A stretch of DNA of 64,000 nt from Bifidobacterium breve DSM 20213 = JCM 1192 (GTDB lineage Bacteria; Actinomycetota; Actinomycetes; Actinomycetales; Bifidobacteriaceae). The translations under genes and the position numbers were made by a program. Of this stretch, positions 3,184-64,000 are shown in pieces; positions within the stretch are counted from its first letter, which is position 1, and the number at the start of each line of letters is the position of its first letter. Under the pieces are notes generated by a model that saw nothing but the letters and a program-made list of their open reading frames with translations, was not told the DNA's origin and made no database searches. Location: positions 1,426,001-1,490,000 of the forward strand of contig NZ_AP012324.1 of NCBI RefSeq assembly GCF_001025175.1. The letters run 5' to 3'.

Positions 3184-4077
3184 TCAGATCCAGTCCAATC
3201 CGAGGTCGATGCTGCGCACGGAATGGGTGAGCGCGCCTACGGAAATCACGTCCACACCGGCGGCAGCCACGGCCGGAACACGCTCCAGATTCATGTTTCC
3301 ACTGGCTTCCACGATGGCCTTGCCATCAATGAGTTCTACTCCGCGGCGAGTGTCATCGAGTGAGAAATTATCCAGCATGATCGTGTCTGCGCCGCCCTCG
3401 AGCACGGCAGGAATCTGCTCGAGGCTATCGACTTCCACCTCAATATGCGTGGTGTGGCCTACCTGTTCGCGCACGTGACGAATGGCACCGGTCAGGTCGA
3501 TACCATGTGCGGCGAGCGCCGCCAGATGATTGTCCTTCATCATGACCGCATCGGACAGTCCGTAACGATGGTTGTGGCCGCCACCGCAGACCACGGCATA
3601 CTTCTCGAACGGGCGCAAGCCCGGAGTGGTTTTGCGCGTATCGACGATGCGGGTGCGTTCGTAACGGTGAGGACGGGTGACCGATCCGTCATAGTTGTCA
3701 CTGTAGATGGCGTTCACCGCGTCCACGAAAGCGGCGGTCATGGTGGCGATGCCGCTCATGCGCTGGGTGAAGTTGAGGGCGATGCGTTCGGCGGTAAGCA
3801 GGTCACGTACCGGACCGGTTACGGTGGCGAGCACCTGGCCGGCTTGGAATCGTTCGCCGTCCTTGATGGCAGCGGTGACAGTGACGGCTGGGTTCTGCGT
3901 GGTGAACGCAGCGCGAAACACCTCGATGCCGCTCATCACGCCGTTTTCGCGTGCGGTGAGATGGGCCGAGCCGGTTTCGCCCGCGGGGATCGTGGTCTCG
4001 CAGGTGATGTCGCCGTAGGGTGCGTCTTCGGCGAGCGCCGCTTCGACGGCGGTATGGATGATGTGTTGCGTAAGCAT
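3184..4077 (-). CDS. nadC: Nicotinate-nucleotide pyrophosphorylase (quinolinate phosphoribosyltransferase)
   Basis: Converts quinolinate and PRPP to nicotinate mononucleotide, CO2 and pyrophosphate, the third de novo NAD step. It has 297 residues, the usual size. Visible family features are EDAPYGDITCE near residue 16, RIALNFTQRMSGIAT at 115-130, the TRKTTPGLRPFEKYAV stretch, MMKDNHL, and the C-terminal barrel motifs EVEVDSLEQ, MLDNFS, VEASGNM and ISVGALTHS. It begins 3 nt after the nadB stop and ends 2 nt before the desulfurase, so the operon is tightly packed. Confidence 0.97.
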   Translation of the reverse strand: MLTQHIIHTAVEAALAEDAPYGDITCETTIPAGETGSAHLTARENGVMSGIEVFRAAFTTQNPAVTVTAAIKDGERFQAGQVLATVTGPVRDLLTAERIALNFTQRMSGIATMTAAFVDAVNAIYSDNYDGSVTRPHRYERTRIVDTRKTTPGLRPFEKYAVVCGGGHNHRYGLSDAVMMKDNHLAALAAHGIDLTGAIRHVREQVGHTTHIEVEVDSLEQIPAVLEGGADTIMLDNFSLDDTRRGVELIDGKAIVEASGNMNLERVPAVAAAGVDVISVGALTHSVRSIDLGLDWI

Positions 4078-49972: not shown

Positions 49973-50557
49973 TTAATTCTGTTGGTTTTGTCTTGGCATG
50001 AGCGCTTCGTAAAAGCGTTCCTCGCATTCGTCCAGCATCGCCTGACTGGATTCATCCTCAAGGAAGGCGTCCAATCCATCGACATCCTGCGTACAGGCCA
50101 CGTCGATGCCACTCGACGCTTCCGGTGCGGAAGCGTCAGCAGCCAATGCGGCGCACATTCGCGCGTCGGTCTCATTCGACATGACCGGCAATCGCAGCCC
50201 GGCGCGCGTCCTGTTTCGTGCGGCTGTCAGCGGATCGTCCAACACTTCCCCATCGGCGGCGAGCATGCTCACGTCTGTCGCGGAATCGGCCAAAGCGTTT
50301 TCCAACGCTTCGAACGCCCCGGTCCACACGCCACGCCCCGTCGAAGGATCGTATCGGCTCGTGTCCTCCCTGCCCTGCATGATCGCCGCGATCGCCTCAC
50401 GGGTCGAAGCCAACCCGAGCAGCGCCTTCCACGATGCGAGCACCTCAGGCATGAACACGAAACTGTTCGACCCGTTCACCGGCGGATCGCATCGGATGAT
50501 GCACAATCCGTTCGCATCCCGTTCGAAAGTCGATGACAAGATTTTCCCTCCAATCAT
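49973..50557 (-). CDS. Phage protein coupled to the tail fibre gene, unknown function
   Basis: 194 residues from ATG 50557, which overlaps the fibre stop (ATGA), so it is translationally coupled. The longer frame to 50743 lies inside the fibre gene. It contains SFVFMPEVLASWKALLGLAS and an Asp/Glu-rich C-terminus (DGLDAFLEDESSQAMLDECE). It may be a fibre chaperone or head-like accessory by position; no family recognised. Confidence 0.65.
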   Translation of the reverse strand: MIGGKILSSTFERDANGLCIIRCDPPVNGSNSFVFMPEVLASWKALLGLASTREAIAAIMQGREDTSRYDPSTGRGVWTGAFEALENALADSATDVSMLAADGEVLDDPLTAARNRTRAGLRLPVMSNETDARMCAALAADASAPEASSGIDVACTQDVDGLDAFLEDESSQAMLDECEERFYEALMPRQNQQN

Positions 50558-53500
50558 TTGACCAGATAGGCCAGGTATTCTGCGTACACTTCGACCGGGC
50601 ACGGCTGGTCGGCGTTGAAAAGCTTCAGGTTGAAGCCGCTCTGACCGCCCGTGCTGGTGGGATGCGCGATGATGCCGGCCCATTCCGAATCCGCGTTCGC
50701 GACCGCATAATAGCGGCCGTATTTCGTCGGACTGAGCCTGCAAGTGATTTGCGCTGATGCGCCGGTCGGGATGCTATGGCCGGGGTTCGGCCACCACGCC
50801 TTCCACGCGGCGCCGGATTGGAAGGTGGACCTGTTCGCGATGCCGCCGAGAAAGCCGCCGAGATACAAATATCCGGTCGCGATGTTCGCTCCGACTCCGA
50901 CCCTGCCGTTCGCGTCGCGCGCTTGGAGCCAGACCCTCGCACCGTTCACGCTATCGTAGGACAAATCGAGCGACGCACTGGCAGTTTTGCTCTCGTCGGG
51001 CTCGTCGTAATTACTGTCCGCCATGGCGTACACCTCGGACGCGATACCGCCGCTTCCGGTGCCGCCCCGCTCGCGTGGCTTGGATCCCAGACGCAGGAAA
51101 GACGCCGGGTCGTTCTTTTTGACGTGTCCGCTCCAAAAATCCAAGACGCTCATCTCGCCGACATCGTTCGACTGGACGGCCGATGCGATGGCCGGAAACC
51201 TGTAGTATTCGCTGTTCGACGAGTCACAGGCCACGAATTCCACTCCGTCACCGATAGACTTTTCCGCTCCGCCAATGACACCGGTCGCGTAGTCCGGAGA
51301 AATACGCACCCTATGCCCGCTAACGCGGGTCTGGAACGTGCCGGTCAGCAGGTTCGACCTGCCCTCGCCGTCCAGAATGACGGTCTGGTTGTGGTTCGAA
51401 TCCCACATCCGCAGGCCCGTCGAATTGAGCTTCACGCCAGTGTTCGCAGCCTCGGAGCTTTGGAATATCGCGCCGGTGAAGACGTAGCCTCGGAACTGGC
51501 CAGCGGCCACCTTGTCGGACGTGATCGTTCCAGCCGCGATCTTCACAGCGGTCACCGAATTGGCGGCGAGCTTGTCCGTGGTGATCGCGCCGGATACTAT
51601 CTTGTCGGCGTTGACCGCGTTGGCGGCGAGTTTGTCGGCGTTAACGCTGTTGGAGGCCAGCTTGTCGGTCGTGACAGCGCCAGCCACGATGTCGCCAGCC
51701 TGAATCTTATGGACATTCAGGAGCGCCACGGTCATGTCCTCCGTCACGCGGAGCTTCGCGGTCGTGACCGAGTTCGCGGCCAATTTGTCGGTGGTGATGG
51801 CGAGCGAGACGATGTTGCGTGCCTGCACCGAGTCGGCTGCGAGCTTCGCGGCGGTCACCGCGTCGGCCACCAGCTTCTCAGCGGTCACGCTGTTGGCGGC
51901 GAGCTTGTCCGTGGTGATCGCATTGGCCTTGACCTTCTCGGCGGTCACGGAGTCCACGGCGAGATGCTTCGCGGCCACGGTTCCAGACGCGAGAATGTTG
52001 TTCGCCACGAGGTCAAAAGGTTCGAAGCGCGTGCCGTCCCACGTCAGGACTTCAACGACGCGATCTGCAAGCGGCACCAAAACGCTTGGAGAAGCATTGG
52101 GCGCACCCTGCCAGTACGTGTAGAAGTCGGCCATGAGGCTGGGCGAATTGTTCTTCTCGCCCTTCCAGCGCGTCCAATATTTTTGGGTGCGCCACCACAT
52201 GTCGCCCGGCTTCAGCCCATCATGCGCGGGTTCGTCCGGGCCACGGTAGATGAGGTTCTTGCCGTCCGCCGTGGTCTGCGCCTTTCTCGCGGCGGCCTGC
52301 GCCTGATTCGCCTGCGCGGCCGCGTTCGCGGCTGTGGTCTGAGCCTTGTCAGCCGTTGATTGCGCCGTCTGCGCGGCAGCATGTGCCTTGACAGCCGCAT
52401 TGGCCGCATCGGTGGCCGCCTTGTCCGTCACCGCCGACCATGTGCCGCCGTTCCACCGTTTCGGCGTGTTAGCGCCATTCGTCGTGTCTATCCACAGTGT
52501 CGTGGACTTGCGCATCGACGCATCCGGAGCAGTGGACTGGATGAGCACGTCGGCCTTGCCGTTCGCCACGCCAGCGGCGGCGGCAGCAGCCGTATTCGCC
52601 TTCTGCGCGGCATTCGCCGCATCGGTGGCGGACTGGGCCGCACTGTCAGCCGTGGCTTTCGCTTGGGTCGCAACGCTCGAAGCATTGACTGCTGTGGACT
52701 TGGCGGCATTGGCGGACTCATTGGCAGTATTCGCCAGAGTCTGCGCATTGCCAGCCGTCTTCTTCGCGCTCTCGGCGGCGGTCTGTGCCGCGTTGGCGGC
52801 ATCCTTCGCCTGACCTGCGGTGACGGTGGCACTCTTGGCGGCAGTCTGGGCGGCATCCGCCGTTGACTGGGCCGTGCCTGCGGCGCTCTTCGCACTGTCT
52901 GCCGTGCCCTGCGCGTTTTTCGCTGCGGCAGCGGCATTCTCAGCGGCCTTCTTCGCGTCGGTGGTCTTCGCCGCGTTGTCCGCGATATCCGACTTCGCCT
53001 GCTCGATCTGCTTCGCATTGTTCTCCACGTCGGCATAGCCCATGTGGTTCCACGCGGAGCCATCCCACACAAGCGTATCGACCACGCGATCAGACAGAGG
53101 CACCAAGACGCTCGGACTGTTATTCGGAGTCCCCGTCCAGTAGGTGTAGAAGTCGGCAAGCATGGAAGGGCTGTTATTGGGCGTGCCCTTCCAGCGAGTC
53201 CAATACTTCTGCGTTTTGAGCCACAGGTCGCCGACGATGAGATTGTCCTTCGGCTCGTCGGGGCCGCGAAACGTATGGTTCTTGCTATGGGCTTCGGCAT
53301 ACGCCTGCGCCACCGACTCCTTCGCCTTGCTGATCTCGCCGTTCGCCGTGGTCAGGTCGCTTTTGGTCTGCGCGATGTCCTTCCGCGCCTGAGACAGATC
53401 GGCCTTGGCTTGCGAGAGCGTCTGATTCGCCGCATCAAGACCAGTCTTATTCGCCTGAATGTCCTTCTGGGCCTGCGTCAGCTTCGCCGTATTATCCTTC

Positions 53501-55404
53501 AAAGCCGTCTGATTGTCAGCCAGGTCTTTTTGGATCTGCTTGACCTCTTCAGGCGAGACAGCCGAAGCCACCGTCACCGAGGCGACTGCCGACCAGTCGG
53601 ACCTGTTGCCCGCATGGTCGACCGAACGAAGGGCGTAGGAGTGCTGTGAACCGGCTGCCAGACCGGTCACGAGATAATCGCCCTGACCGGACTGGTTTGC
53701 GCTGATGACGGTCATGACGGCCGCATCGACGCCCTCGCCGACCTCAATATGGTCGAAGTCCGATTCCATCGACGCGCCAGTGCTTGTCCTGCCATCCCAA
53801 TGGACGGTCACCACGCCAAGCTCGGACGCAAGCACCGGCTTCGACGGTACGGAGCATGGCGTCGTATCCGACTCCACAGTTGCCACCACGACGGCCGACC
53901 ATTCGCCGAGCTTGTCCGAATACGTCGGCACGGCCCTGACGCGCACCTCGATTTGCGTGCCGCAATCCAAGCCGCCGAAACCGAGCTGCGTCTTATCAGT
54001 CGTGCCTGCCGAATGCCAAGGCGCACCATCCACGTGCCTGCGCCACTCAATGGCGTAATTGCTGATCTCGATGGACGTGTTGTTCGTGGCTTCGGTCACG
54101 GCGGACCACGAAGCCGTGGCCAGACCATGCGCGAAACCATCCGCACCAATGTAGGCGTCGGTCTGCACGATCAATCCGAGAGGGGCCTTCGGCACGCGAT
54201 GGTCACGGTCGGACGAGGCGGTCGTGCCGCCCTCGCTGCCGGCCAACGCGGCGCCACCGGTGATGCCCTTGATCTTCTTCGCCTGACGCACGGAAGCGTC
54301 ATACTTAATATCATTCAGAGCGATTGAGCAGGATAAGCCCTCGTTCTGGCGCATGCTCAGGTCGATTTCCTGCACGCGCACCTTCTCCCCATGGGAGACG
54401 GTGGGGGCGGTAATCCAATCGCCAGCATGATAGTCAACGAGCGGCAGACTGTCCATGTCGGAAACGATGAGATCGCGCGTGTACTGGCCACGCACTCTCG
54501 CCGCATCATCAAGCGTGGACTGCATGAATGCCTGCGCGGTATCCTTATCGGACACGCCACCCTGCGAGCTATAGGATTCCCACTTGCCCCAAGGCGTCGG
54601 AGCAGCCGGATTATCCATGCGAAAAAGCAGATTATTGTCACCCTCGACAAGGATGGTTGATGCCAGGTCGGCGATGGACTCCTCGAATGGGGCTTCGCTG
54701 ATGTCACGAGCCAATTGCAGCACGACCTGCTTGCTTAGATCACGACTCAAAGCCGTGCTGTCCGCATTCCACATTTTCAGCGTGCGGCCGCTGGTGCGCC
54801 AGTCGCAGCCACCGCCATTGACCAGCGAGCTGAGAATGGTCTGCAGGTCGGTGCCGAGCGAATAATACAAAGTGTATTTTCTGTTCCAGGCATCACCATT
54901 CGAGTCTCTGGCGGTGTCGAAGCCGAGCGTCAGGCCGGTGGCCGCGCCGCCACGGGCCTTATTCTCGTCAAGGAGCGTCTTGAGAATCGTGCCCGGATTG
55001 GACGAATAAAATGGGCGCTTGCCCTTGTTGTCGCCGTCCGTGAGCAGATGGCTGGAATCGTTGTTCTCCGCCTTGCTCAGGAGCCAGCTGATCGACTGGC
55101 CGGAATAGGTGACGGTCTTGGTACGGTCGTCCGTCTTGCCGCTGCGCCCAGTGATGACATAGCGAGCATTGTCCGGCTCGCGATAGCCGGTGCCGTCCGA
55201 CACCTCCACGGCCACCTCGATACCGTCAGTAAGCTCACGGTCGAACGCCTGCGCGTCACCGGACAGCATCGAATACTCGATACTGATGGCACCGTCATCA
55301 TCGTGGAGCATCGACGCGCTGAAGCTCACCGGCTCCGCCAATACGCCGATACGTGCGCCGAAAGGCCTGTATGCCACCAGACGAGCATGCAAAGACTTGC
55401 CCAT
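50554..55404 (-). CDS. Giant tail fibre / tail hub protein, 1616 residues
   Basis: N-terminal ~400 residues (LVAYRPFGARIGVLAEPVSF, VVLQLARDISEAPFEESIAD) look like a siphovirus tail hub domain. Two fibronectin III-like repeats follow (about 405-610), then a coiled coil (620-705), a W-rich module with KYWTRWKGTPNNSPS, an Ala-rich coiled coil of about 140 residues, a second copy of the module (KYWTRWKGEKNNSPS), a row of TDKLAANSVTAEKL repeats (1138-1300), and a C-terminal beta-rich domain. This is the expected build of a long receptor-binding fibre. SD GGGAG lies 6-11 nt upstream. It presumably binds a bifidobacterial surface sugar. Confidence 0.9.
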   Translation of the reverse strand: MGKSLHARLVAYRPFGARIGVLAEPVSFSASMLHDDDGAISIEYSMLSGDAQAFDRELTDGIEVAVEVSDGTGYREPDNARYVITGRSGKTDDRTKTVTYSGQSISWLLSKAENNDSSHLLTDGDNKGKRPFYSSNPGTILKTLLDENKARGGAATGLTLGFDTARDSNGDAWNRKYTLYYSLGTDLQTILSSLVNGGGCDWRTSGRTLKMWNADSTALSRDLSKQVVLQLARDISEAPFEESIADLASTILVEGDNNLLFRMDNPAAPTPWGKWESYSSQGGVSDKDTAQAFMQSTLDDAARVRGQYTRDLIVSDMDSLPLVDYHAGDWITAPTVSHGEKVRVQEIDLSMRQNEGLSCSIALNDIKYDASVRQAKKIKGITGGAALAGSEGGTTASSDRDHRVPKAPLGLIVQTDAYIGADGFAHGLATASWSAVTEATNNTSIEISNYAIEWRRHVDGAPWHSAGTTDKTQLGFGGLDCGTQIEVRVRAVPTYSDKLGEWSAVVVATVESDTTPCSVPSKPVLASELGVVTVHWDGRTSTGASMESDFDHIEVGEGVDAAVMTVISANQSGQGDYLVTGLAAGSQHSYALRSVDHAGNRSDWSAVASVTVASAVSPEEVKQIQKDLADNQTALKDNTAKLTQAQKDIQANKTGLDAANQTLSQAKADLSQARKDIAQTKSDLTTANGEISKAKESVAQAYAEAHSKNHTFRGPDEPKDNLIVGDLWLKTQKYWTRWKGTPNNSPSMLADFYTYWTGTPNNSPSVLVPLSDRVVDTLVWDGSAWNHMGYADVENNAKQIEQAKSDIADNAAKTTDAKKAAENAAAAAKNAQGTADSAKSAAGTAQSTADAAQTAAKSATVTAGQAKDAANAAQTAAESAKKTAGNAQTLANTANESANAAKSTAVNASSVATQAKATADSAAQSATDAANAAQKANTAAAAAAGVANGKADVLIQSTAPDASMRKSTTLWIDTTNGANTPKRWNGGTWSAVTDKAATDAANAAVKAHAAAQTAQSTADKAQTTAANAAAQANQAQAAARKAQTTADGKNLIYRGPDEPAHDGLKPGDMWWRTQKYWTRWKGEKNNSPSLMADFYTYWQGAPNASPSVLVPLADRVVEVLTWDGTRFEPFDLVANNILASGTVAAKHLAVDSVTAEKVKANAITTDKLAANSVTAEKLVADAVTAAKLAADSVQARNIVSLAITTDKLAANSVTTAKLRVTEDMTVALLNVHKIQAGDIVAGAVTTDKLASNSVNADKLAANAVNADKIVSGAITTDKLAANSVTAVKIAAGTITSDKVAAGQFRGYVFTGAIFQSSEAANTGVKLNSTGLRMWDSNHNQTVILDGEGRSNLLTGTFQTRVSGHRVRISPDYATGVIGGAEKSIGDGVEFVACDSSNSEYYRFPAIASAVQSNDVGEMSVLDFWSGHVKKNDPASFLRLGSKPRERGGTGSGGIASEVYAMADSNYDEPDESKTASASLDLSYDSVNGARVWLQARDANGRVGVGANIATGYLYLGGFLGGIANRSTFQSGAAWKAWWPNPGHSIPTGASAQITCRLSPTKYGRYYAVANADSEWAGIIAHPTSTGGQSGFNLKLFNADQPCPVEVYAEYLAYLVK

Positions 55405-55410
55405 GATTAA

Positions 55411-56316
55411 CTACTCCCATGATTGCAAAAACCGGCATGTCACCTTGTCGGTGCCGCCGGTCTGTCTGATATCGAGCCGATAGTCGCCGGAATCGATCGC
55501 GGGCCACACCTGCAACGGTTCGGTGGTCCAGTCGACGCCATTCGACGCATCCGTACCACCGGACCATGCGTCGGCATTGGCAGCCGTCCACGCCTTGCGA
55601 TTGGCCACATCGATAAAGAGGTAAGGTCGTGAGGCGTCACGCTGGCCGCCCCACATGAGGTTCGTGCCACTCACCGGATCCGCGATGGTAACGCCAGTGG
55701 CCGCTCCGAAACGAAGCACCAGCATGCCGATCGGAGCGTTGGAAAGCCACCCCTCCGGCATGATGTCGAAAAGCTCGGACGGCCCGGCGTTAGGCAATCC
55801 CTGCCAGCGAGCCCAATACCCCTTGCCGCTCGGCTTGGAAACCCCGCCCGGCAGCAGCCTGCCACCCGACGCGGCCAACGTCGCCTCCTGCCACTGCACG
55901 CCACGCCAAAACACGTCCGGCAGTTGGAACACGGCGGTCATGACGCGCAGGTCGCGGAACGGGCGTTCGTCATCGTCCGGCTCGCAGCTCGTGCACACCG
56001 CTCTCGTGACCATGCTGCGAGAACTGCCGTCCTCCAAGGTCTCCGTCCTGCCGAGCGTGAGCTTCGCCGCATGCAGGCAACGGGCACGGAAACGCGAGAT
56101 CAGCGCATCGGAATCCGCGCCCCACGCCGCGACCTTGATTGTCAGCTCCGGCGCGTCCAGCACCGGAATCGAGGAGCCTACGATGACGCCGCTGCGTCCG
56201 CTCACCTGCACCGTGTCAATGATCGGCGACAGCGACGTGTAATGCGTAGTGCCGACGATGACGCGCATCCGCTCGGAGTCGAGCGGCTGGCCGTTGAGCG
56301 AATAGCTGACTTTCAT
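55411..56316 (-). CDS. Distal tail (Dit-like) protein
   Basis: 301 residues. The first half (SLSPIIDTVQVSGRSGVIVG, APELTIKVAAWGADSDALIS, DDERPFRDLRVMTAVFQLPD) fits the N-terminal ring domain of Dit proteins that cap the tail tube; the second half carries a galectin-like beta domain. Within it, GYWARWQGLPNAGPSELFDI repeats the motif seen twice in the fibre protein downstream. It is placed between tape measure and fibre, as Dit genes are. Confidence 0.85.
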   Translation of the reverse strand: MKVSYSLNGQPLDSERMRVIVGTTHYTSLSPIIDTVQVSGRSGVIVGSSIPVLDAPELTIKVAAWGADSDALISRFRARCLHAAKLTLGRTETLEDGSSRSMVTRAVCTSCEPDDDERPFRDLRVMTAVFQLPDVFWRGVQWQEATLAASGGRLLPGGVSKPSGKGYWARWQGLPNAGPSELFDIMPEGWLSNAPIGMLVLRFGAATGVTIADPVSGTNLMWGGQRDASRPYLFIDVANRKAWTAANADAWSGGTDASNGVDWTTEPLQVWPAIDSGDYRLDIRQTGGTDKVTCRFLQSWE

Positions 56317-56331
56317 TCGGATTCCTCCCGA

Positions 56332-59193
56332 TTACCATTGCGGCATGGCCGCTGTCTGCAACTTCTGCTGCGTGCTTATCGACGTCGGCGCGATGGCCGG
56401 ATAGTTGAACGTCTGCGTGATGTTCGTCACGCTCCCACCATTGCCGTAGGCGACTGCGTTAACTCCACGCGAGGCGTTGGCGACGCCGACGGAATACGAG
56501 GCGTCCTGCGACGGCAGGATGCCAGTCAGCCTTCCAGCCGCCTTCCTCACCTTCGAAGCGCTCTCGTCGATGCCGACGGCCATGCCCTCGCCTATCATCT
56601 CGCCGACCTGATCGCGGAACACTCGCGACGGTGAATGGATGCCAAGCTTGCGTTTCACCCAATTCAAGGCGTTATCGGCCGCATTGACAGCGGCGGTCAC
56701 GAGTCTGCCTGCCGCGCCTGCGATGCCGGTCGCGATGCCGGTGATGATATTCATACCGACACTCCCCCAGTTAACCGACGTGAACCCGCTCATGATCTGT
56801 CCGATCATGCCGGGAATGGCACCGATAAGCCTTGGCACCGACGCTATGAAGCCGTTGGCAAGTGCGCCGAGCAGCTGTACGCCAGCCTGCAGGATCTGCG
56901 GGAGACGATTGATGATGCCACCGACAAGCTGGCCGATGAGGATCGGGACCTTGCCGTTTAGGTCGGGCAGGGCGTTGATGAGGCCCTGCGCCAGTCCGAG
57001 GATGAGCTTCAGGCCGCTGTCGATGATTTGCGGCAGGTTGTTGAGGATGCCTTGCACGAGGTTGAGGACGGCGTTGATGCCGATGGGGATGAGCTGCGGC
57101 AATTGGGCGGACAATCCGGCCAGCAGCGTCGTCAGCACGATGACAGCCGTGGATGCGATCTGAGGCAATGCCTGCACGATGCCCTGCAAGAGGTTCGTTA
57201 TCATCGTCAATCCGGTTTGCAGGAACGACGGCAGTCTCGACGTGACCCACGATTGGAACTTGGTGAGCAGCTTGGGCAGGCTCGTCGAGATCCATGTGGT
57301 CGCGCTGGTCAGCAGCATTGTGCCGAGCTGTCCCAACGCGCCGAGCACCGGCGGCAGTATCTGCATGACCAACGCCGGCAGCGTGCTCCCCAAAGATGAG
57401 AACAGTTGCGGCAGTGCGGCGGTGATGCCGGTGATGATCTGCGCGATGCGTGGACCCACGTTCTGGATGACTGTGCTCACGGAATCGACCAGTTGGGTGG
57501 TCAATCCGTTGATGTCGGCATTGTCCTTGCCGAGTTCCGCCAGCCAGTTCTGCCATGCGGCCTTCATCATGCCGACGGAGCCCTCGATGGTTGTCGCGGC
57601 CTCCTTGGCGGTGGTGCCGCTGATGCCCATCTGCTCCTGCATGATGTGGATGGCCTGCACCACGTCGGAGAACTTGTCGATGGACAGGTCGCCCATCTCC
57701 CCGTTCGCCTGCTTGACCTTGTTCGCGTCCTGGATCAGACGCTCCATCTCGGATTTGGTACCGCCGTAGCCGAGCTTCAGGTTGTCGAGCATGGCGTAGT
57801 TGCCGCGCGCCAGAGACTGGTAGGTCTGTTGGATGGACTCGATGTCGGTGCCCATCTTGTTGGCGTTGTCCGACATGTCGATCATGGCGGTGTTGCCGAG
57901 TTCCGCCGCCTTCGCGGTGTCGCCGCCGAGTGAGCTGATCAGCGAGGCGGAAAAGCTCGTGACCTGCGTCATATACTCGTTGGCGCTCACTCCGGCTGTC
58001 CGGTACGCTTCCGCCGCGTACTTCTGCACGGTGCCAGAAGCGCCCTTGAACAGCGTGTCCACGCCGCCGACGGCCTGCTCATAGGTCGCGTATGCGTCGA
58101 GAGCGCTCTTGCCGACTCCTGCCAAAGCAGCGACGGCGGTGCCTACGCCAGCCAGTCCGACCGTGGCGACGCCCTTCAACGCGCCGACGGCCTTGCCCGA
58201 CATGGAGCTGATCGCGCTCCACGCAATGTCGGCTCCGCCCTTCAACGCTCCGGCCATCCGTGAGGCCACGGAGCTGGCGACGCCGAACAGGCCTGAGAAC
58301 ACTCCGCTCGCCGCCGATCCGACGTTGCGGAAATAACCGCCTATGCTGCCCACGGCATTCTTAAATGGTGCAGGAATCTTCGCGGCGATGCCGCTGATGC
58401 GCTGGCCGAGCCCGTAGGACAGGTCGTCGCCGAACTGTCGGGCGATGGCCGCGCCCTGTTTGAAGGGGCTGGCGACCTTGCCTCCCAACGCGGACGCCTT
58501 CGAGGCGACCTGATCGAACGCGCTGCGGGCGATGCCGCCGATCTTGCCGAACACGCCCGCCCCGTCGAGCATGGCCATGTCGGCGTTCGCCCAGCCGGCG
58601 CGCACTTTCTCGATCGCACCCAACGCCGGGGCAGCCATCGCCCTGCCGAGGTTTCTGAACGCCGCTCCGAGCGAACCGGCTGTCTTCTCGCTGCTGGCGG
58701 CGAGATTGTCCTGAGCGTCCTTGAGCGCCTTCTGCGCATCCTTCAACCGGTTCTCGGCCTGCGTCGCCCGGTCGGTCATGGTGGACAGTCTCAGCCGCGC
58801 CTGTTCGAGCCTGATGGTCGCGGCCTCGGCCTGCGTGCTGCCCTCACCATGCTTGGCTATGGCATTGGCGACGCTCTCCTCGGCGGCACGCACCTGATTC
58901 GCCGCCGCCTCCTGCTGGAGCATGGACTGACGGTATGCGGCCGTGGATTTCGCCACGTCACGCTCATAGGATTTCAACACGTCCGCGCTGAAATCGTTCG
59001 CCGACTGCTTGAAACCGTTTTTGAACGCGCGTCCGAACAGTCCACCGCTTTTGCCGCCGTCCATGCTCGAATCGAAGGTCTTCGACGCGGCCTTGCCACT
59101 CGCGCCGACCTCCTTGTTGACCGCGCTGCGGAAACCCCTCATCGAGGGGAAAACGCTGATGTGCGCGGAACCGAGTTCGCTGCCGAACGCCAT
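56332..59193 (-). CDS. Tape measure protein
   Basis: 953 residues; its length sets tail length. N-terminal SAHISVFPSMRGFRSAVNKE is typical, followed by a coiled coil (90-190), several Gly/Ala-rich amphipathic stretches, the TP901-like core domain around 400-530 (VGGVDTLFKGASGTVQKYAA, ASLISSLGGDTAKAAELGNT) and a long hydrophobic, repetitive part (IPIGINAVLNLVQGILNNLP) that can line the tail. It stands directly after the tail chaperone genes. Confidence 0.94.
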   Translation of the reverse strand: MAFGSELGSAHISVFPSMRGFRSAVNKEVGASGKAASKTFDSSMDGGKSGGLFGRAFKNGFKQSANDFSADVLKSYERDVAKSTAAYRQSMLQQEAAANQVRAAEESVANAIAKHGEGSTQAEAATIRLEQARLRLSTMTDRATQAENRLKDAQKALKDAQDNLAASSEKTAGSLGAAFRNLGRAMAAPALGAIEKVRAGWANADMAMLDGAGVFGKIGGIARSAFDQVASKASALGGKVASPFKQGAAIARQFGDDLSYGLGQRISGIAAKIPAPFKNAVGSIGGYFRNVGSAASGVFSGLFGVASSVASRMAGALKGGADIAWSAISSMSGKAVGALKGVATVGLAGVGTAVAALAGVGKSALDAYATYEQAVGGVDTLFKGASGTVQKYAAEAYRTAGVSANEYMTQVTSFSASLISSLGGDTAKAAELGNTAMIDMSDNANKMGTDIESIQQTYQSLARGNYAMLDNLKLGYGGTKSEMERLIQDANKVKQANGEMGDLSIDKFSDVVQAIHIMQEQMGISGTTAKEAATTIEGSVGMMKAAWQNWLAELGKDNADINGLTTQLVDSVSTVIQNVGPRIAQIITGITAALPQLFSSLGSTLPALVMQILPPVLGALGQLGTMLLTSATTWISTSLPKLLTKFQSWVTSRLPSFLQTGLTMITNLLQGIVQALPQIASTAVIVLTTLLAGLSAQLPQLIPIGINAVLNLVQGILNNLPQIIDSGLKLILGLAQGLINALPDLNGKVPILIGQLVGGIINRLPQILQAGVQLLGALANGFIASVPRLIGAIPGMIGQIMSGFTSVNWGSVGMNIITGIATGIAGAAGRLVTAAVNAADNALNWVKRKLGIHSPSRVFRDQVGEMIGEGMAVGIDESASKVRKAAGRLTGILPSQDASYSVGVANASRGVNAVAYGNGGSVTNITQTFNYPAIAPTSISTQQKLQTAAMPQW

Positions 59194-59227
59194 GCGGCAC
59201 CTCCACTATTCAGTTTTGTCCAAAAAA

Positions 59228-59554
59228 TCAGTCCTCGTAGAGCGTCTGGAACACCGGGCTCATGCCCTTGGTCTGTTCGCGCAGCCGCTCACGCTCGGCC
59301 TTCTCCCTGTCCGCCCGCAATCGTTTCGCAAGAGAATCGAAAGGTTTAGGATACTCGTCGCTGCCAAGCGCGTAGACGACCGGTATCTCACCCCACCGGG
59401 CCGGATAATCCAAGCCGTTGAGCTCCGCGCCCGTGTAGGTCGACGGATCGCCGATGAGCTGCTCGAGGAGCGCTATCGCGTCGCCGTAGCGGAGCCTGCC
59501 GCCAAGATCGGCCTGCAGACTCCACCCATGCGTCGTGAAATCGGCTCGGATCAC
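59228..59554 (-). CDS. Tail assembly chaperone, downstream frame (GT-type product)
   Basis: 108 residues if begun at GTG 59554, which overlaps the upstream stop (GTGA). The sequence THGWSLQADLGGRLRYGDAI and AIALLEQLIGDPSTYTGAEL with a charged tail matches the second half of frameshifted actinophage tail chaperones. It is probably made mainly as a -1 frameshift fusion with the upstream gene (about 248 residues), since its frame stays open back to the GGGAAAA heptamer at 59593-59599. Confidence 0.82.
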   Translation of the reverse strand: MIRADFTTHGWSLQADLGGRLRYGDAIALLEQLIGDPSTYTGAELNGLDYPARWGEIPVVYALGSDEYPKPFDSLAKRLRADREKAERERLREQTKGMSPVFQTLYED

Positions 59555-59973
59555 GCTCCCGTGGTCGGCGAGCTGGCGGGAGAACCATTGGATTTTCCCA
59601 GTGAGGCTCCCTGCGAGCGCACCACCGCGTCGCCATAGTCGGACAGGAGGTTGAACACGACCTGCACCGGTTCGCCGTTCAGCGCTTTCGCCTGTTTGTC
59701 TCCGGCGAAAGCGCTCAGAATGCGTTTGAGCTGTTCGACGCTTTCCGTGTCATCGGACGTGTTCGACAGTCTGGTGAAATCGTCGATGCTCATCGACAAT
59801 GGGAGCTTGTACGTGCGTCCGCCGGGCACGAGCGCCCAATACACATCGCCCTTGATGATGTGGCGCACCTTGTAATTTTGTGCGATGGAGGCGAACGCCT
59901 CCTCGTCGTTTTCTTCCGTCCACTGGTCGAAATCCTCGACGGTCGGCTTGAAGTCGGTGGAAGTGGAAGTCAT
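59551..59973 (-). CDS. Tail assembly chaperone, upstream frame (G-type product)
   Basis: 140 residues, acidic start (FKPTVEDFDQWTEENDEEAF) and a helical body (SVEQLKRILSAFAGDKQAKA). Situated between the major tail protein and the tape measure, the place of lambda G/GT. The slip heptamer G-GGA-AAA lies 14 codons before its stop, in the correct phase. It helps load the tape measure and tail tube subunits. Confidence 0.85.
   Translation of the reverse strand: MTSTSTDFKPTVEDFDQWTEENDEEAFASIAQNYKVRHIIKGDVYWALVPGGRTYKLPLSMSIDDFTRLSNTSDDTESVEQLKRILSAFAGDKQAKALNGEPVQVVFNLLSDYGDAVVRSQGASLGKSNGSPASSPTTGA
59593..59599 (-). other. Programmed -1 frameshift heptamer GGGAAAA
   Basis: On the minus strand the codons CTG GGA AAA contain G-GGA-AAA in the canonical X-XXY-YYZ phase. 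After a -1 slip, reading continues ATC CAA TGG without a stop into the downstream chaperone gene. Lambda uses the similar GGGAAAG at the same place. Confidence 0.85.
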
Positions 59974-60010
59974 TGTCTTGTCCTATCTGCTTTTCGCCTG
60001 CCTGCGGTAA

Positions 60011-60057
60011 AAAGGGTTCCCGGACCGCGCAGACAGGCGAGATAGGCGGTCCGGGAA
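60011..60057 (-). terminator. Terminator after the major tail protein genes
   Basis: A perfect 12-bp stem TTCCCGGACCGC/GCGGTCCGGGAA with a 17-nt loop, followed on the minus strand by CCCTTTTT. It probably lowers transcription of the chaperone, tape measure and fibre genes relative to the tail tube gene. Confidence 0.8.
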
Positions 60058-60073
60058 GATTTTCGTCCGCCGG

Positions 60074-60349
60074 TCAGGCGGCGCGTGCGGTGACAGTGAC
60101 CGTCAGATCGGGTGAGGTCACGCCGCCATACGTGGCGTTGATCCTCGCGCTCCCGGCCTTGACGGCGGTGAGCGTGCCGCCATCGACGGTCGCCACGCCT
60201 GCATCCTTGGATGTGAACATGGCCTGTCCGGTCACGTCCACGGTGGTCTTGTCCACATGGGTGGCGACGGCCTTGAGCGCGAGCTTCGCGCCTTGGACGA
60301 CCGACGGCCTCGTATTGCCGTCAGCCGAAGTCACGGCCACCGCCGTCAC
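60074..60349 (-). CDS. Ig-like (Big_2-type) extension of the major tail protein
   Basis: The frame encodes a single bacterial Ig-like domain: VTAVAVTSADGNTRPSVVQG, AVATHVDKTTVDVTGQAMFT, SKDAGVATVDGGTLTAVKAG and GVTSPDLTVTVTA. As a separate gene it would begin at GTG 60349, overlapping the tail protein stop (GTGA). But its frame is open through CCCAAAA at 60352-60358, so it is probably made by -1 frameshifting as a C-terminal domain of a minority of tail tube subunits (fusion of about 290 residues). Such Ig-like domains decorate the tails of many phages and may help weak cell-surface binding. Confidence 0.85.
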   Translation of the reverse strand: MTAVAVTSADGNTRPSVVQGAKLALKAVATHVDKTTVDVTGQAMFTSKDAGVATVDGGTLTAVKAGSARINATYGGVTSPDLTVTVTARAA

Positions 60350-60945
60350 GCTTTTGGGTCGTACCAGCTTTCGATCCAGCGCGTGTTCGGATGCGCAGGA
60401 TCCACGTACAGCGGGTCCTTCATCCATTCGACGGTGAGCTCGCGGCCGGTGGCCGAGCCACGCTCCTGCTGGTCAGGTTTGTTGTCGTTAATCTGCATGA
60501 CGCCGGCGCGACGGTGGACACGCCCGGTGTCGAACGTCTCCTCCTCGTACGCCATCCATTTCGCATCCTGGATGATGTCGGCCACGTGGTAGACGCCATT
60601 GGAGTCCGGCTCGCCGATGGTGATCTTGCGGGTCAGCGCATTGTTTTCGGCCGGGCTGAAAGTCTGCGTGAGGCTGGTCGCCAGCGGCCGCTTCTTGTAC
60701 CCGTCCTGCAAAAACTCGATGGGATCGTCGCCGTCGCGCGAATCCTGATTGCCGCCGTCGGACTTGACGAGTCCGATGCATGCGGTCGACCGATTGTATG
60801 CGGCCGGAAGTTCCGTCGTCGCCTTGCTGGGTGCGATCATTTCCGGCGTGATTTTGTTTTCTGTGGCGTACGGGACGATCATGATGGCTGCGGTGACGAG
60901 CGCCTCCACCTGTCCCAGATCCATGCCCTGACTGTCTTTGGCCAT
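60346..60945 (-). CDS. Major tail protein (tail tube)
   Basis: 199 residues. VEALVTAAIMIVPYATENKI and the KSDGG and GVYHVADIIQDAKWMAYEEE stretches fit actinophage tube proteins. Its last codons TAC GAC CCA AAA GCG TGA contain the slip heptamer C-CCA-AAA just before the stop. The gene lies between the tail terminator gene and the chaperones. Strong SD (AAGGAA). Confidence 0.85.
   Translation of the reverse strand: MAKDSQGMDLGQVEALVTAAIMIVPYATENKITPEMIAPSKATTELPAAYNRSTACIGLVKSDGGNQDSRDGDDPIEFLQDGYKKRPLATSLTQTFSPAENNALTRKITIGEPDSNGVYHVADIIQDAKWMAYEEETFDTGRVHRRAGVMQINDNKPDQQERGSATGRELTVEWMKDPLYVDPAHPNTRWIESWYDPKA
60352..60358 (-). other. Programmed -1 frameshift heptamer CCCAAAA
   Basis: C-CCA-AAA is in the zero frame two codons before the major tail protein stop (GCG TGA follows). 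A -1 slip continues AGC GTG ACG into the Ig-like domain. CCCAAAA is an efficient bacterial slip site and known from other phages' structural genes. Confidence 0.88.
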
Positions 60946-60958
60946 GGTGATTCCTTCC

Positions 60959-61390
60959 TTATGGTTGTCTGATTCCGGCCGTCGAATATTCGACGGTCAT
61001 GTAGTAGCGGCACCATGCCGCGTCCTCGCCGACCGGGTACGGGCCGTTGCAGCCGTCAGACACGACGGCGCAGATGCGGCTGCCTTCGGCAAATCCGATG
61101 AGGATGCCGGGCTCGCCGGTCAGCACGCCGTACACGCAGGCCGCCAGATCGCGGCATGGTTTCGTGTCGTTGCGCGTCCATCCGAGCACGTTGACGCCTA
61201 TCGACCTGTCGAACGTCACGCGGTCGGCGGATTGCGTGCCGCCGTCATCACGCACGACCACGAGCGGATAGGAGCCGTCGTAATCGTCCGGGATGCGGTT
61301 TCCGACCTGCAGGCCCGCGACGTCCGTGATATTGGAGCGCAGCCAGCCGGTGAGGAAAAGCTCGAGATCGGGTGGGATGACGCTTGCCAT
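60959..61390 (-). CDS. Tail terminator / tail completion protein
   Basis: 143 residues: PPDLELFLTGWLRSNITDVA, YPLVVVRDDGGTQSADRVTF and an RSIGVNVLGWTRNDTKPCRD stretch resemble minor tail proteins that end the tube (gpU-like or YqbJ-like). Its start overlaps the upstream stop by one base (TGATG), and it is upstream of the major tail gene, the usual order. Naming depends on position as much as on sequence. Confidence 0.7.
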   Translation of the reverse strand: MASVIPPDLELFLTGWLRSNITDVAGLQVGNRIPDDYDGSYPLVVVRDDGGTQSADRVTFDRSIGVNVLGWTRNDTKPCRDLAACVYGVLTGEPGILIGFAEGSRICAVVSDGCNGPYPVGEDAAWCRYYMTVEYSTAGIRQP

Positions 61391-61677
61391 CAGACCCTCG
61401 CCTTCCTCAAAGACTTGGCCAGATTGCCGGTCTGCGCCTCCACGAGCAGGGTCTTCGGGTCGTGGCCGACGACCATGACGGTCGTTCGGTGCTCCCTTTT
61501 GACCTCCTCGATTCCAAGGCCGTCGCGGTATGCGCCTGTTTCGACCGGCGCGGACGCCTTCGCGTAGGCGAGTGCCCTGTTCGCGGCCAGCGTGGTGAGC
61601 GCCTTGACCCCGGCGCTGTTGAGAATCTCGTCGAAGAACTTCGGATTGAAGTCGACCGATATCCTGCTTTTCGCCAT
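61390..61677 (-). CDS. HK97 gp10-like head-tail protein
   Basis: 95 residues: FNPKFFDEILNSAGVKALTT, NRALAYAKASAPVETGAYRD and IEEVKREHRTTVMVVGHDPK, then an EAQTGNLAKSLR end. The 'AKASAPVETGxYRD' stretch is the familiar gp10/neck motif. It lies between the head-closure and tail terminator genes. Confidence 0.8.
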   Translation of the reverse strand: MAKSRISVDFNPKFFDEILNSAGVKALTTLAANRALAYAKASAPVETGAYRDGLGIEEVKREHRTTVMVVGHDPKTLLVEAQTGNLAKSLRKARV

Positions 61678-61681
61678 TTGT

Positions 61682-62080
61682 TCAGCCCTTTCTTTCCGTC
61701 AGACGGCATTCCAAGGTCGGACGCCAGCCAGTGAACGCGTTCGCGTCCTTAGAAGGGAATCCGTCGACTTCCCACAAGCGTCCGTCGTCGGGGTCTGCGC
61801 GGATCCGGTCGCCGATTTTCACGTCGGCTGTCGGATCCGGGATGGTGAGGTACGCCGTGGATGCGGTCTGCGTGTCGAGCGTGTCCGGCGTGCGCATGCT
61901 GGAGCTGGATGAGAGCGCGCCCATGATGGTGAGCTCGTCCGGAGGCACGCTCCAGTCCGGCTCGTTCTGCGCCGGATTGTACGGGTTGGCCTTGCGTTTG
62001 GCGCGCAGTCGCATGAAGCGCGTGGCACCAGCCATGCCGAAAACGCCGCCACCGGCATTCAGATCGTCAAGCAGGCTCAT
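61682..62080 (-). CDS. Head closure / stopper protein
   Basis: 132 residues. DIRLRAK-like N-terminus (MRLRAKRKANPYNPAQNEPD) then the pattern DVKIGDRIRADPDDGRLWEV and AFTGWRPTLECRLTERKG, typical of short head-tail joining proteins (gp16-like). Its start overlaps the previous gene's stop by 4 nt. Role inferred from position between the connector and gp10-like genes. Confidence 0.7.
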   Translation of the reverse strand: MSLLDDLNAGGGVFGMAGATRFMRLRAKRKANPYNPAQNEPDWSVPPDELTIMGALSSSSSMRTPDTLDTQTASTAYLTIPDPTADVKIGDRIRADPDDGRLWEVDGFPSKDANAFTGWRPTLECRLTERKG

Positions 62081-62595
62081 GGCAATCCTCCAAGCCGGTA
62101 GGGTTTGAGCTTGTCCTTCTCCTCCTGCATGAGCGACACCGCATCGTATGACGCGCTGGACCCGTTGGTGGACTGGGATTTGACGAGTCCGATCGGGCTC
62201 ATGCCGGCACGCTTCGCGGCGCTGATGAGCACCTGCTGCACGTCCGGCGCCTCATTGTATCCGGCATGGATTGAATAATGGATGGCCGCGACACCGACCG
62301 GGAAGCCACCGGAAAGCGACTCCACAAGACCCGTCTCCGGGTCATAGGCGTAAGCCAGTGGATTGCCCTGACGGTCGGTCAATGATTCGATGCTCGTCAC
62401 ATGACGTGCAGGCAGCCGAATCACCGTGCCGCCGCGAGTATTCAGCGTTCCCGCCAATGCCGCGTTCGGCATGACATGCCAGCCACATTCGCGGCGGATG
62501 GCCGCCTGCGCGGCCCTGAGCCGAAACTGCGCGTCATCCTCGAAGGCCGAAGGGTCGGCAATCATGTCAGGAACCACATTCGCTTCATCACTCAT
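62077..62595 (-). CDS. Head-tail connector (adaptor) protein
   Basis: 172 residues from ATG 62595 with GGAGG 7 nt upstream. It has FEDDAQFRLRAAQAAIRREC (helical start), GTVIRLPARHVTSIESLTDR, a YSIHAGYNEAPDVQQVLISA helix and a conserved-looking SYDAVSLMQEEKDKLKPYRL end, as in gp6/gp15-like adaptors that extend the portal. Confidence 0.8.
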   Translation of the reverse strand: MSDEANVVPDMIADPSAFEDDAQFRLRAAQAAIRRECGWHVMPNAALAGTLNTRGGTVIRLPARHVTSIESLTDRQGNPLAYAYDPETGLVESLSGGFPVGVAAIHYSIHAGYNEAPDVQQVLISAAKRAGMSPIGLVKSQSTNGSSASYDAVSLMQEEKDKLKPYRLGGLP

Positions 62596-62609
62596 GCCGA
62601 CCTCCAATC

Positions 62610-62957
62610 TCAGCTCGTCTTCACACTGCCAGCAGCCACAAGACCAGCCACAAGCGCATTGACACGCCTCGCCAAATCGTTGTACGCGGTCACGAGCGCG
62701 TCGTACTCCGCCTTCGTCGGGGCGGTGGAAGCCGCAGCCGCGACGGAGGCGTTCGCAGTGCCGGAGATCGTGACATTCGCCAGCTTCACGCCACCAAGAG
62801 TGTTCTCGGCGGCGGCGGGAAGCACATACGGAGTGGCAGTGGCGCCGCCGGTGACGTTCACCGGATTGTCGTTGCCGTCCACGAAGAGCACGTCCTCGAT
62901 GTACGTCGAAGCGTCCACCTTGGCCTTGGATGCGTCGGCCAGCCGATACTGCTTCAC
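62610..62957 (-). CDS. Head fibre / capsid decoration-like protein
   Basis: 115 residues from GTG 62957 (TGAGG upstream, 8 nt after the capsid stop). The middle has YVLPAAAENTLGGVKLANVT, the 'LPxATxxTLGGVK' motif of head fibre and tail-spike attachment proteins, then an Ala-rich part and a C-terminal helix (KAEYDALVTAYNDLARRVNA). The longer frame to 63773 is a shadow of the capsid gene. It probably binds the capsid surface or helps contact the host. Confidence 0.72.
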   Translation of the reverse strand: MKQYRLADASKAKVDASTYIEDVLFVDGNDNPVNVTGGATATPYVLPAAAENTLGGVKLANVTISGTANASVAAAASTAPTKAEYDALVTAYNDLARRVNALVAGLVAAGSVKTS

Positions 62958-62965
62958 GGCTCGCC

Positions 62966-64000
62966 TCACTTTCCGGCCTTGCCGAGGGACACCTTGACGA
63001 AAGCCTTGGGGTACTTGACCTGCAGGGCGAGGCGTTCCTTGACTCGGAACGTGATCTTGTCGTTGGTGAAGTCGTTTTCGTGGCTGTTGGTGGATTCGAC
63101 GGTCAGACCGCCCTTGCGGTAGATGGTGCCGCCTGCCTTGAACGCGCCGACGAGCACGGTTCCCTTGGTCATCGCCTCGGTGACCACGGTGCGCAGTCCC
63201 CACAGCGGCGGGTTCTGCATGATGCCGCCGTTGCCGTACTGTCCGGCGAAGAAGCCACCGCCGAAATACTGGCCGTTCGCATCCTTGGACAGGCGGATTG
63301 TCTGATAGTCGGCAGGGTTGATGACCACGGCGTCGGCGGAGAAGCCGGTCGCGGTGGCGATATCCGTGGTGGCCGCGAAGATGCGGTCGGGGTCGGAATC
63401 GTTGGCCTGCGCCTTGGTCTGGATTTCGCGGTTCAGAATGCCCCTGAGATTCGGGTCGGTGCCGTTGCCGGACAGGAGCTGAATCTCCTCCTGCAGCTTC
63501 AGATTGTATTGGGCGTGCTGGTTGATCTCGGACACGACGAACGGCAGGTCGTCGGCCATGTCGTCGGTGATCTTCCACCATGCGGCGATCTCGTGCAGGC
63601 TGTCGGACACCCAAGTCGGGTCCGGAAGGTGGATCTGCGGCTTCTGCCCGCCCTCGGCGACGGTGGTGGCGTTGCCTTCGAACGCGCCGTAGACCGGGTA
63701 TTTGATGGTGGTGCCGCTCATGGTGCCGGACGCGAACAGGTCGGCGATGACGAGCGGACGCTCGTACGGCCATACGCCGTTCTGGTCGGTCTGGGTGAGG
63801 AACGGCGCGTAGGCTCCGGACGCTCCGCCTGTGGCCTGAGTGTCGGAAGCGGCCTTGAATTCCGGAGTGGAGAACAGGCCTCCCTTGGTGGCGAGCACGC
63901 TCAACCCCTTTTCCTTCAGGGACTTGACGTAGAAGTCGCCGAGGGTCTGCGCCTCGACGCCCTTGTGTTCGGTCTTGGACGTGCCGGCGAGCTTGTCGAG
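62966..64000 (-). CDS. HK97-type major capsid protein (5' end outside window)
   Basis: The frame is open to the window edge, so the N-terminus is missing; 344 residues are visible. KLAGTSKTEHKGVEAQTLGD, SGAYAPFLTQTDQNGVWPYE, VYGAFEGNATTVAEGGQKPQ, TWVSDSLHEIAAWWKITDDM, LLSGNGTDPNLRGILNREIQ, DAVVINPADYQTIRLSKDAN and VLVGAFKAGGTIYRKGGLTV match the HK97 fold (A and P domains). The TTG at 63904 is internal, not a start. Portal, protease and terminase genes should follow outside the window. Confidence 0.93.
   Translation of the reverse strand, partial: LDKLAGTSKTEHKGVEAQTLGDFYVKSLKEKGLSVLATKGGLFSTPEFKAASDTQATGGASGAYAPFLTQTDQNGVWPYERPLVIADLFASGTMSGTTIKYPVYGAFEGNATTVAEGGQKPQIHLPDPTWVSDSLHEIAAWWKITDDMADDLPFVVSEINQHAQYNLKLQEEIQLLSGNGTDPNLRGILNREIQTKAQANDSDPDRIFAATTDIATATGFSADAVVINPADYQTIRLSKDANGQYFGGGFFAGQYGNGGIMQNPPLWGLRTVVTEAMTKGTVLVGAFKAGGTIYRKGGLTVESTNSHENDFTNDKITFRVKERLALQVKYPKAFVKVSLGKAGK

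What the first reader, a model, noticed from the sequence alone, without database searches (positions are those of the whole stretch)
60074..60945. -1 frameshift (CCCAAAA) attaches an Ig-like domain to the major tail protein
The last codons of the tail tube gene are TAC GAC CCA AAA GCG TGA, with the slip heptamer in exact phase. The -1 frame is open and encodes one Ig-like domain ending at 60074. Ig domains added to tail tubes by frameshifting are known in other phages; here the site, phase and domain are all visible. A bifidobacterial phage with such surface domains could use them to hold to mucus or host glycans.
Basis: partly seen in the sequence, partly recalled or inferred. Interest (0 to 1): 0.75.

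Follow-up and report, generated by a model that had tools for sequence, protein, structure and literature searches.

The report
Frameshift-added Ig domain on phage tail
The tail-tube gene of a prophage in a bacterium that is likely a Bifidobacterium ends in a sequence that is predicted to make some ribosomes step back one base and add an immunoglobulin-like domain to the tail, and the same 13-14-letter sequence stands at the ends of unrelated phage genes and of a bacterial sugar-transporter gene.

Summary
The tail-tube gene (60945-60346, minus strand) ends C CCA AAA GCG TGA, and the -1 frame stays open for 92 codons. They are predicted to fold as a Big_2-like Ig domain (pLDDT 97). The 5 full-length relatives of 90-100% identity keep the junction, and differences in the Ig part fall mostly on third positions of the -1 frame. 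In-frame tail-Ig fusions exist, one solved (phage Douge gp13). Programmed -1 frameshifting is the best reading; it was not measured. The mucus/glycan role was not tested.

The arrangement is of a known kind. The less expected result is wider: CCCAAAA-GCN-stop recurs in the genus at the ends of tail, capsid, head-fibre-like and unidentified phage genes and of a host PTS gene (EIICB to EIIA, 13 of 25 loci). Of 52 places matching CCCAAAAGCNTRA in 112 genomes, 32 have the frameshift arrangement (2 look spurious), against 2 of 24 read when the next codon is not GCN. The open-access searches made here listed no description of this cassette or of the PTS frameshift.

The parts
60346..60945 (-). Tail-tube (major tail) protein gene, 199 aa, stop TGA at 60348-60346
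   Evidence: ORF; phrog_10909 major tail protein, E 6e-38; no Pfam hit for this member, PF25681 Phage_TTP_17 in 2 of 15 aligned relatives; weak Foldseek best match Douge gp13, TM 0.51
60352..60358 (-). Slip heptamer C CCA AAA in phase with the tail gene
   Evidence: kept in L003, L004, L005, L006 and L020
60345..60358 (-). Extended cassette CCCAAAAGCGTGAC (heptamer, GCG, stop TGA, C)
   Evidence: 20 places in 16 of 112 genus genomes; 3 in 295 other genomes of the class
60077..60352 (-). -1 frame extension, 92 codons, Big_2-like Ig domain; stop 60076-60074
60272..60351 (-). 80 nt after the heptamer with strong predicted RNA structure: hairpins at 60349-60330, 60327-60298 and 60292-60276; possible stimulator
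   Evidence: -43 kcal/mol, z -3.60, 0 of 200 shuffles as stable; function untested

Best explanation
The tail-tube gene ends in C CCA AAA GCG TGA, where a minority of ribosomes would likely slip back one base and read on for 92 codons, so that virions are predicted to carry a 290-residue tail-tube protein with a C-terminal Ig-like domain beside the 199-residue form. Shown by sequence: the heptamer in phase, the open -1 frame and the conserved junction. Predicted: the Ig fold. Inferred: the Pro and Lys tRNAs re-pair one base upstream (CCA to CCC, AAA to AAA), and extended subunits enter the tube with the Ig domain outward, as in phages with in-frame tail-Ig fusions. The site is probably one use of a recurrent cassette, CCCAAAA-GC(G/C/A)-stop, with which this genus and its phages add optional C-terminal modules. 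In host PTS genes the cassette comes with a Shine-Dalgarno-like element upstream and usually a hairpin downstream; this tail gene has no such element, and its stable downstream RNA structure may serve instead.
For: Heptamer and phase. Junction kept in the 5 full-length relatives of 90-100% identity found by protein search, which are not all independent, with no change in 32 nt in 6 pairwise comparisons. Third-position bias in the -1 frame. Confident Ig model. Douge gp13 holds tail tube and this Ig type in one chain. In-frame tail-Ig relatives L015, L011 and P0015. The same cassette joins tail tubes and capsids to -1 frame modules, and PTS EIICB to EIIA. In the PTS loci the heptamer is in 13 of 13 junctions while the overlapping GTG codon is GTA in 3 and ATG in 1; all 13 have an SD-like element by the rule of PMC4066793 as I coded it, and in 7 the best-scoring hairpin is or contains a short stem after the spacer. 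CCCAAAA followed by a non-GC codon and TGA shows the arrangement in 2 of 24 loci read. V_VV.A_AA.R heptamers are among the efficient ones in E. coli (PMC4066793, passages).
Against: No measurement of slippage or of virion protein. No SD-like element before the window site; only 4 of the 14 phage sites tested have one. Downstream folding is strong here (z -3.60) but not in L053 (z 0.05), and modest in L011 (-1.10), L036 (-1.18) and a PTS site (-1.39). CCCAAAAGCNTRA as a string is less frequent in the genus than its reversed control (52 against about 85 by hand sum), so the case rests on arrangement. Many tail homologues have no extension. A GTG start overlaps the stop (GTGA), so reinitiation is possible.
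Confidence: 0.87

Rival explanations
1. The Ig part is a separate small protein made by termination-reinitiation at the GTG that overlaps the TGA stop (GTGA), not a fusion.
For: GTG overlaps the stop in the window. Databases hold the domain as a free ORF beginning there (P0016 and others).
Against: No SD-like element in the 30 nt before the heptamer. In 10 of the 30 plausible genus sites the overlapping -1 codon is CTG (7) or GTA (3), not ATG, GTG or TTG. In the PTS set, found by protein, the heptamer is in 13 of 13 junctions. Tail-Ig fusions in one frame exist in relatives.
Confidence: 0.08
2. The Ig part is untranslated debris of a domain that a mutation or a sequencing error put out of frame.
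For: In the tail family other members carry the domain in frame (L015, P0015) or lack it. Some sites are plainly decayed, such as L150 with a 35-codon -1 ORF.
Against: The same junction in contigs of separate origin (L004, L006, L020), third-position bias in the -1 frame, and the same slip string in unrelated genes.
Confidence: 0.04
3. A +1 frameshift at GCG UGA C, the yeast antizyme-type site contained in the cassette, is the event that matters.
For: GCG_UGA_C is named as the S. cerevisiae antizyme site in PMC5009743 (passage).
Against: The +1 frame adds only 8 residues here, and the Ig domain lies in the -1 frame. PTS variants with TAA or other following bases keep the -1 arrangement.
Confidence: 0.01

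Closest known systems
SPP1 gp17.1/gp17.1* and Listeria A118, A500 and PSA major tail proteins
   Same: A frameshift at the end of a tail-tube or major tail gene makes a longer second form; in SPP1 it adds an Ig-type (FN3) domain, with the two forms at 3:1 (PMC8718954, PMC9022992, PMC5009743; passages).
   Different: Those shifts are +1; here it would be -1, at CCCAAAA, with a Big_2-like domain. The ratio here is unknown.
T3 major coat protein and Lactobacillus phage A2: Ig-like extensions by -1 frameshifting; 936-group lactococcal TpeX tail extension
   Same: Ig-like extension by -1 shifting (T3, A2; PMC5009743, passage), or a frameshift-made extension of the major tail protein (936 group; PMC6669499, passages).
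   Different: Other genes, hosts and sites. In the 936 group the shift comes after the Ig-type domain, as in L011 here, not before it as in the window. The passages read do not mention a fixed extended cassette shared by unrelated genes.
Mycobacteriophage Douge gp13 and phage lambda gpV
   Same: Tail-tube protein with a C-terminal Big_2-type Ig domain (PMC8718954, passages).
   Different: The domain is part of one continuous chain there; here it lies in the -1 frame.
E. coli dnaX and IS911-type -1 frameshift signals
   Same: Slip heptamer with upstream SD and downstream structure (PMC4066793 passages; dnaX from the PMC5600365 abstract in the listing). The PTS junctions found here match this plan.
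   Different: The window site lacks the SD. Across unrelated genes here the heptamer is followed by one GCN codon and a stop.

Membership tests
Phage structural proteins with an Ig-like domain added by frameshifting | shift site in phase at the 3' end of a virion structural gene | tested here: met
   CCCAAAA in phase, 10 nt before the stop of a tail-tube gene
Phage structural proteins with an Ig-like domain added by frameshifting | the new frame encodes an Ig-like fold | tested here: met
   pLDDT 97.1; solved Ig domains matched
Phage structural proteins with an Ig-like domain added by frameshifting | site and new frame conserved in relatives | tested here: met
   5 of 5 full-length relatives at 90-100% identity, not all independent; third-position bias. 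Among more distant homologues found by protein search, L011 alone has the slip site with -1 Ig domains
Phage structural proteins with an Ig-like domain added by frameshifting | both forms present in virions | not testable with these tools
   needs protein data
Canonical bacterial -1 frameshift signal with stimulators | SD-like element 6-17 nt upstream | tested here: not met
   none at the window site; present in 13 of 13 PTS junctions and 4 of 14 phage sites tested
Canonical bacterial -1 frameshift signal with stimulators | downstream RNA structure | tested here: inconclusive
   z -3.60 at the window site but 0.05 in L053 and -1.1 to -1.4 in three others; function untested
Pfam Big_2 (PF02368) | score at or above the curated cut-off of 22.8 bits | tested here: not met
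   20.1 bits, E 6.3e-4; the aligned relative L036 scores 42.8. It is therefore called Big_2-like

The most novel reading that the evidence does not exclude
Bifidobacteria and their phages share a portable -1 frameshift cassette, CCCAAAA-GC(G/C/A)-stop, that works as a genus-wide signal for optional C-terminal modules: it adds Ig or other domains to tail tubes, capsids and head fibres, a second part to a small paired phage ORF, and EIIA to the host's own glucose-type PTS permease, so that one gene yields both EIICB and EIICBA.
Probability: 0.6. Interest if true: 0.72.

Novelty: new variant of a known kind. Interest (0 to 1): 0.55.

Why it matters
For the tail gene alone this is a further member of a known kind, and it would correct database entries that hold the Ig domain as a free hypothetical ORF. 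The wider pattern matters more. If a fixed 13-14-nt signal drives -1 shifting in this genus, it gives a ready test set (tails, capsids, a PTS permease) for what makes a strong frameshift site in high-GC Actinobacteria, a simple annotation rule, and a case of phage and host genes converging on, or exchanging, one recoding signal. A frameshifted PTS permease would set the ratio of EIICB to EIICBA by translation.

Tried and rejected
Rejected: reinitiation, unexpressed debris and +1 shifting (see rivals). Considered: that the string is simply abundant. The 14-mer is rare: 20 places in 112 genus genomes with 3 for the reversed control, and 3 places in 295 other genomes of the class, none with long ORFs on both sides. 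The 13-mer CCCAAAAGCNTRA is not enriched in number over its reversed control (52 against about 85, my hand sum of the control columns). The case rests on arrangement, not abundance.

Led nowhere: the genome-contig scan with the tail protein (42 stretches, none a relative); Rfam over 50000-64000 (none); the search for related loci with the Ig alignment (too divergent); the tail profile against PDB sequences (none); literature searches for a bifidobacterial tail or PTS frameshift (one search listed 10 of 114 papers, 12 of 15, 10 of 20). Of 150 occurrences of the 14-mer in the loci then held, duplicates included, 57 passed the ORF test, some of them plainly chance. The list of CCCAAAANNNTGA places was cut, and 24 loci with a non-GC codon were read.

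Full report
What is there. The window is part of a 2.27-Mb single-contig genome. The genus is taken as Bifidobacterium because near-identical Ig ORFs carry that name (P0031, P0083); no call names the genome itself. On the minus strand the order is major head protein, a head-fibre-like protein, connector genes, tail terminator, tail tube, tail chaperone G and T, tape measure. The tail-tube gene 60945-60346 ends TAC GAC CCA AAA GCG TGA, and CCCAAAA (60358-60352) is in phase for a tandem -1 slip. After the slip the frame reads AGC GTG ACG ... for 92 codons, with the stop at 60076-60074. Heptamers of the class V_VV.A_AA.R are among the most efficient in E. coli (PMC4066793, passages).

The domain. 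Pfam gives Big_2 at 20.1 bits, below its cut-off. The AlphaFold2 model has pLDDT 97.1 and pTM 0.84. Its best solved matches are Leptospira LigA and LigB, then the Douge connector chain 8zdj_S; among viral models the best is a major tail subunit of Propionibacterium phage G4. A profile of 19 sequences hits Douge tail tube protein gp13 at residues 217-298 and Douge major capsid protein gp8 near its C terminus. The tail model is only moderate (pLDDT 72.9) and its best match, 8zdj_S again, is weak (TM 0.51, rmsd 12). So one solved chain holds both parts in one frame.

Selection on the -1 frame. Among window, L004, L006 and L020 a 32-nt stretch over the junction has no differences in any of the 6 pairs. 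In the Ig region 8 of 12, 12 of 18 and 10 of 15 differences from the window fall on third positions of the -1 frame; there the zero frame has 5-6 stops and the +1 frame 1-2. The relatives are not all independent: L003 is 100% identical over the tail protein, and L004 and L005 have the same junction and Ig sequence.

Relatives of the tail protein. Protein searches found close copies with the slip site and homologues of about 30-58% identity. Among these, L011 (45-47%) has an in-frame Ig domain followed by CCCAAAAGCGTGACG and further Ig domains in the -1 frame. L015 and the protein P0015 carry an in-frame Big_2-type domain (P0015 just below the cut-off), L023 an in-frame TIG domain, and L021 an in-frame extension without a Pfam match. 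The others read to their stop have no in-phase slip site with a -1 Ig extension at the gene end; L007/L246, L249 and L252 run off the contig, and L017/L018 show one broken gene. L053, found through the DNA pattern, is a 41% relative with the same 15-nt string and its own Ig domain. The domain is thus optional in this family and attached in more than one way.

A recurrent cassette. The 14-mer CCCAAAAGCGTGAC occurs 20 times in 16 of 112 genus genomes, and 3 times in 295 other genomes of the class, none of the three with the arrangement. Of the 20, 17 join an upstream ORF of at least 80 codons to a -1 ORF of at least 35. The looser CCCAAAAGCNTRA has 52 places in 35 of 112 genomes; 32 have at least 80 codons upstream and 40 in the -1 frame. 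Two of these (L230, L232) look spurious. The other 30, sorted by me from the sequences and from family scans of examples, are 13 PTS junctions, 8 tail tubes (scanned members fall in phrog_10909, 2491, 4574 and 117), 3 capsids (phrog_2263 for L199), 2 genes related to head fibres (one hits head-fibre families; the other shares only an uncharacterised family with it) and 4 pairs of unidentified short ORFs. Background: 87 of 1313 sites of any 7-mer followed by GCNTRA in 400 kb of genus DNA pass the same test. CCCAAAA followed by a non-GC codon and TGA passes in 2 of 24 loci read, neither protein-like; against 32 of 52, Fisher p is 1e-5, or 4e-5 with 30 of 52. These p-values treat related loci as independent and are too small for that reason.

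Tests that did not choose loci by the pattern. A capsid query matched in 13 genomes; 12 loci could be read at the gene end. Three have CCCAAAA-GCG-TGA with a -1 extension, and nine show no in-phase slip site. For the PTS, the 25 best EIIA loci, one per genome (L163-L187), split into 13 with CCCAAAA at the end of EIICB and EIIA in the -1 frame, 11 with EIIA as a separate ORF (AGGAGG-like site before it printed for L172, L180 and L182) and 1 in-frame EIICBA (the G011 junction was seen through the pattern locus L145, its EIIA being broken). EIIC, EIIB and EIIA are confirmed by Pfam in G003. The heptamer is in 13 of 13; the bases after it vary (GCGTGAC 8, GCGTAAC 1, GCGTAAA 2, GCGTGAA 1, GCATGAC 1), so the overlapping GTG is GTA in 3 while the slip site stays. 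All 13 have an SD-like element by the published rule as I coded it, and in 7 the best-scoring hairpin is or contains a short GGCRGC/GCYGCC stem after the spacer, with changes on both arms between genomes. In the own genome this EIICB copy is cut to 181 codons, so not every copy is functional.

Mechanism and limits. The likely mechanism is tandem slippage of the Pro and Lys tRNAs. The window site lacks an SD-like element. The 80 nt after the heptamer fold with z -3.60, which may stimulate, but L053 shows no such signal and others are modest. Why the codon after the heptamer is GCN and the stop comes next is unexplained. Slippage rate, virion ratio and function are unmeasured. That tail Ig domains weakly bind host carbohydrates is a proposal in a review that says it remains to be verified (PMC8718954, passages); no call here tests it.

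Literature. I read passages, not whole papers, of PMC5009743, PMC8718954, PMC9022992, PMC6669499, PMC4066793, PMC3711429, PMC10885494 and PMC9187656. They describe frameshift-added tail and coat domains in other phages, rules for -1 sites, and bifidobacterial pilus genes switched by replication slippage. The passages shown do not mention a bifidobacterial tail, capsid or PTS frameshift. The library is open-access only. Fraser 2006 and Auzat 2008 were seen only as citations.

Noticed in passing
window 59593-59599 (-): GGGAAAA in phase in the tail chaperone G gene, 46 nt before its stop; the -1 frame is open into T (stop ending at 59228), so the tail operon likely has a second, classical G/GT frameshift.
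   Followed up: partly
L298 (G000:C1:2035500-2041500), site at 3683: The PTS copy beside the second CCCAAAAGCGTGAC of the own genome keeps EIIA and EIIB but the upstream ORF is cut to 181 codons.
   Followed up: partly
L228 at 3292 and 5460; L231; L141 at 8591 and 10594: Single prophages or contigs carry the cassette at both a head gene and a tail-tube gene, each with its own Ig-like or other -1 extension.
   Followed up: partly
L267 and L268, capsid ends: The capsid -1 ORF stops after 55 residues of an Ig-like domain, and an ORF overlapping at ATGA in the third frame continues with what looks like its second half and a further domain.
   Followed up: no
L047, L052, L055, L131, L132, L134: In viral metagenome contigs CCCAAAAGCGTGAC joins a short ORF to a 158-codon -1 ORF with several cysteines; the one scanned (L131) has no Pfam match.
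   Followed up: partly
L140: The -1 ORF after the cassette encodes a glycosyl hydrolase family 25 domain and a peptidoglycan-binding domain.
   Followed up: no
L197, L200, L201, L211: CCCAAAAGCCTGA joins two ORFs, 116-145 and 118-127 codons, in four genomes; the L200 pair has no PHROG match. The layout resembles a tail-chaperone G/GT pair, which is my guess.
   Followed up: partly
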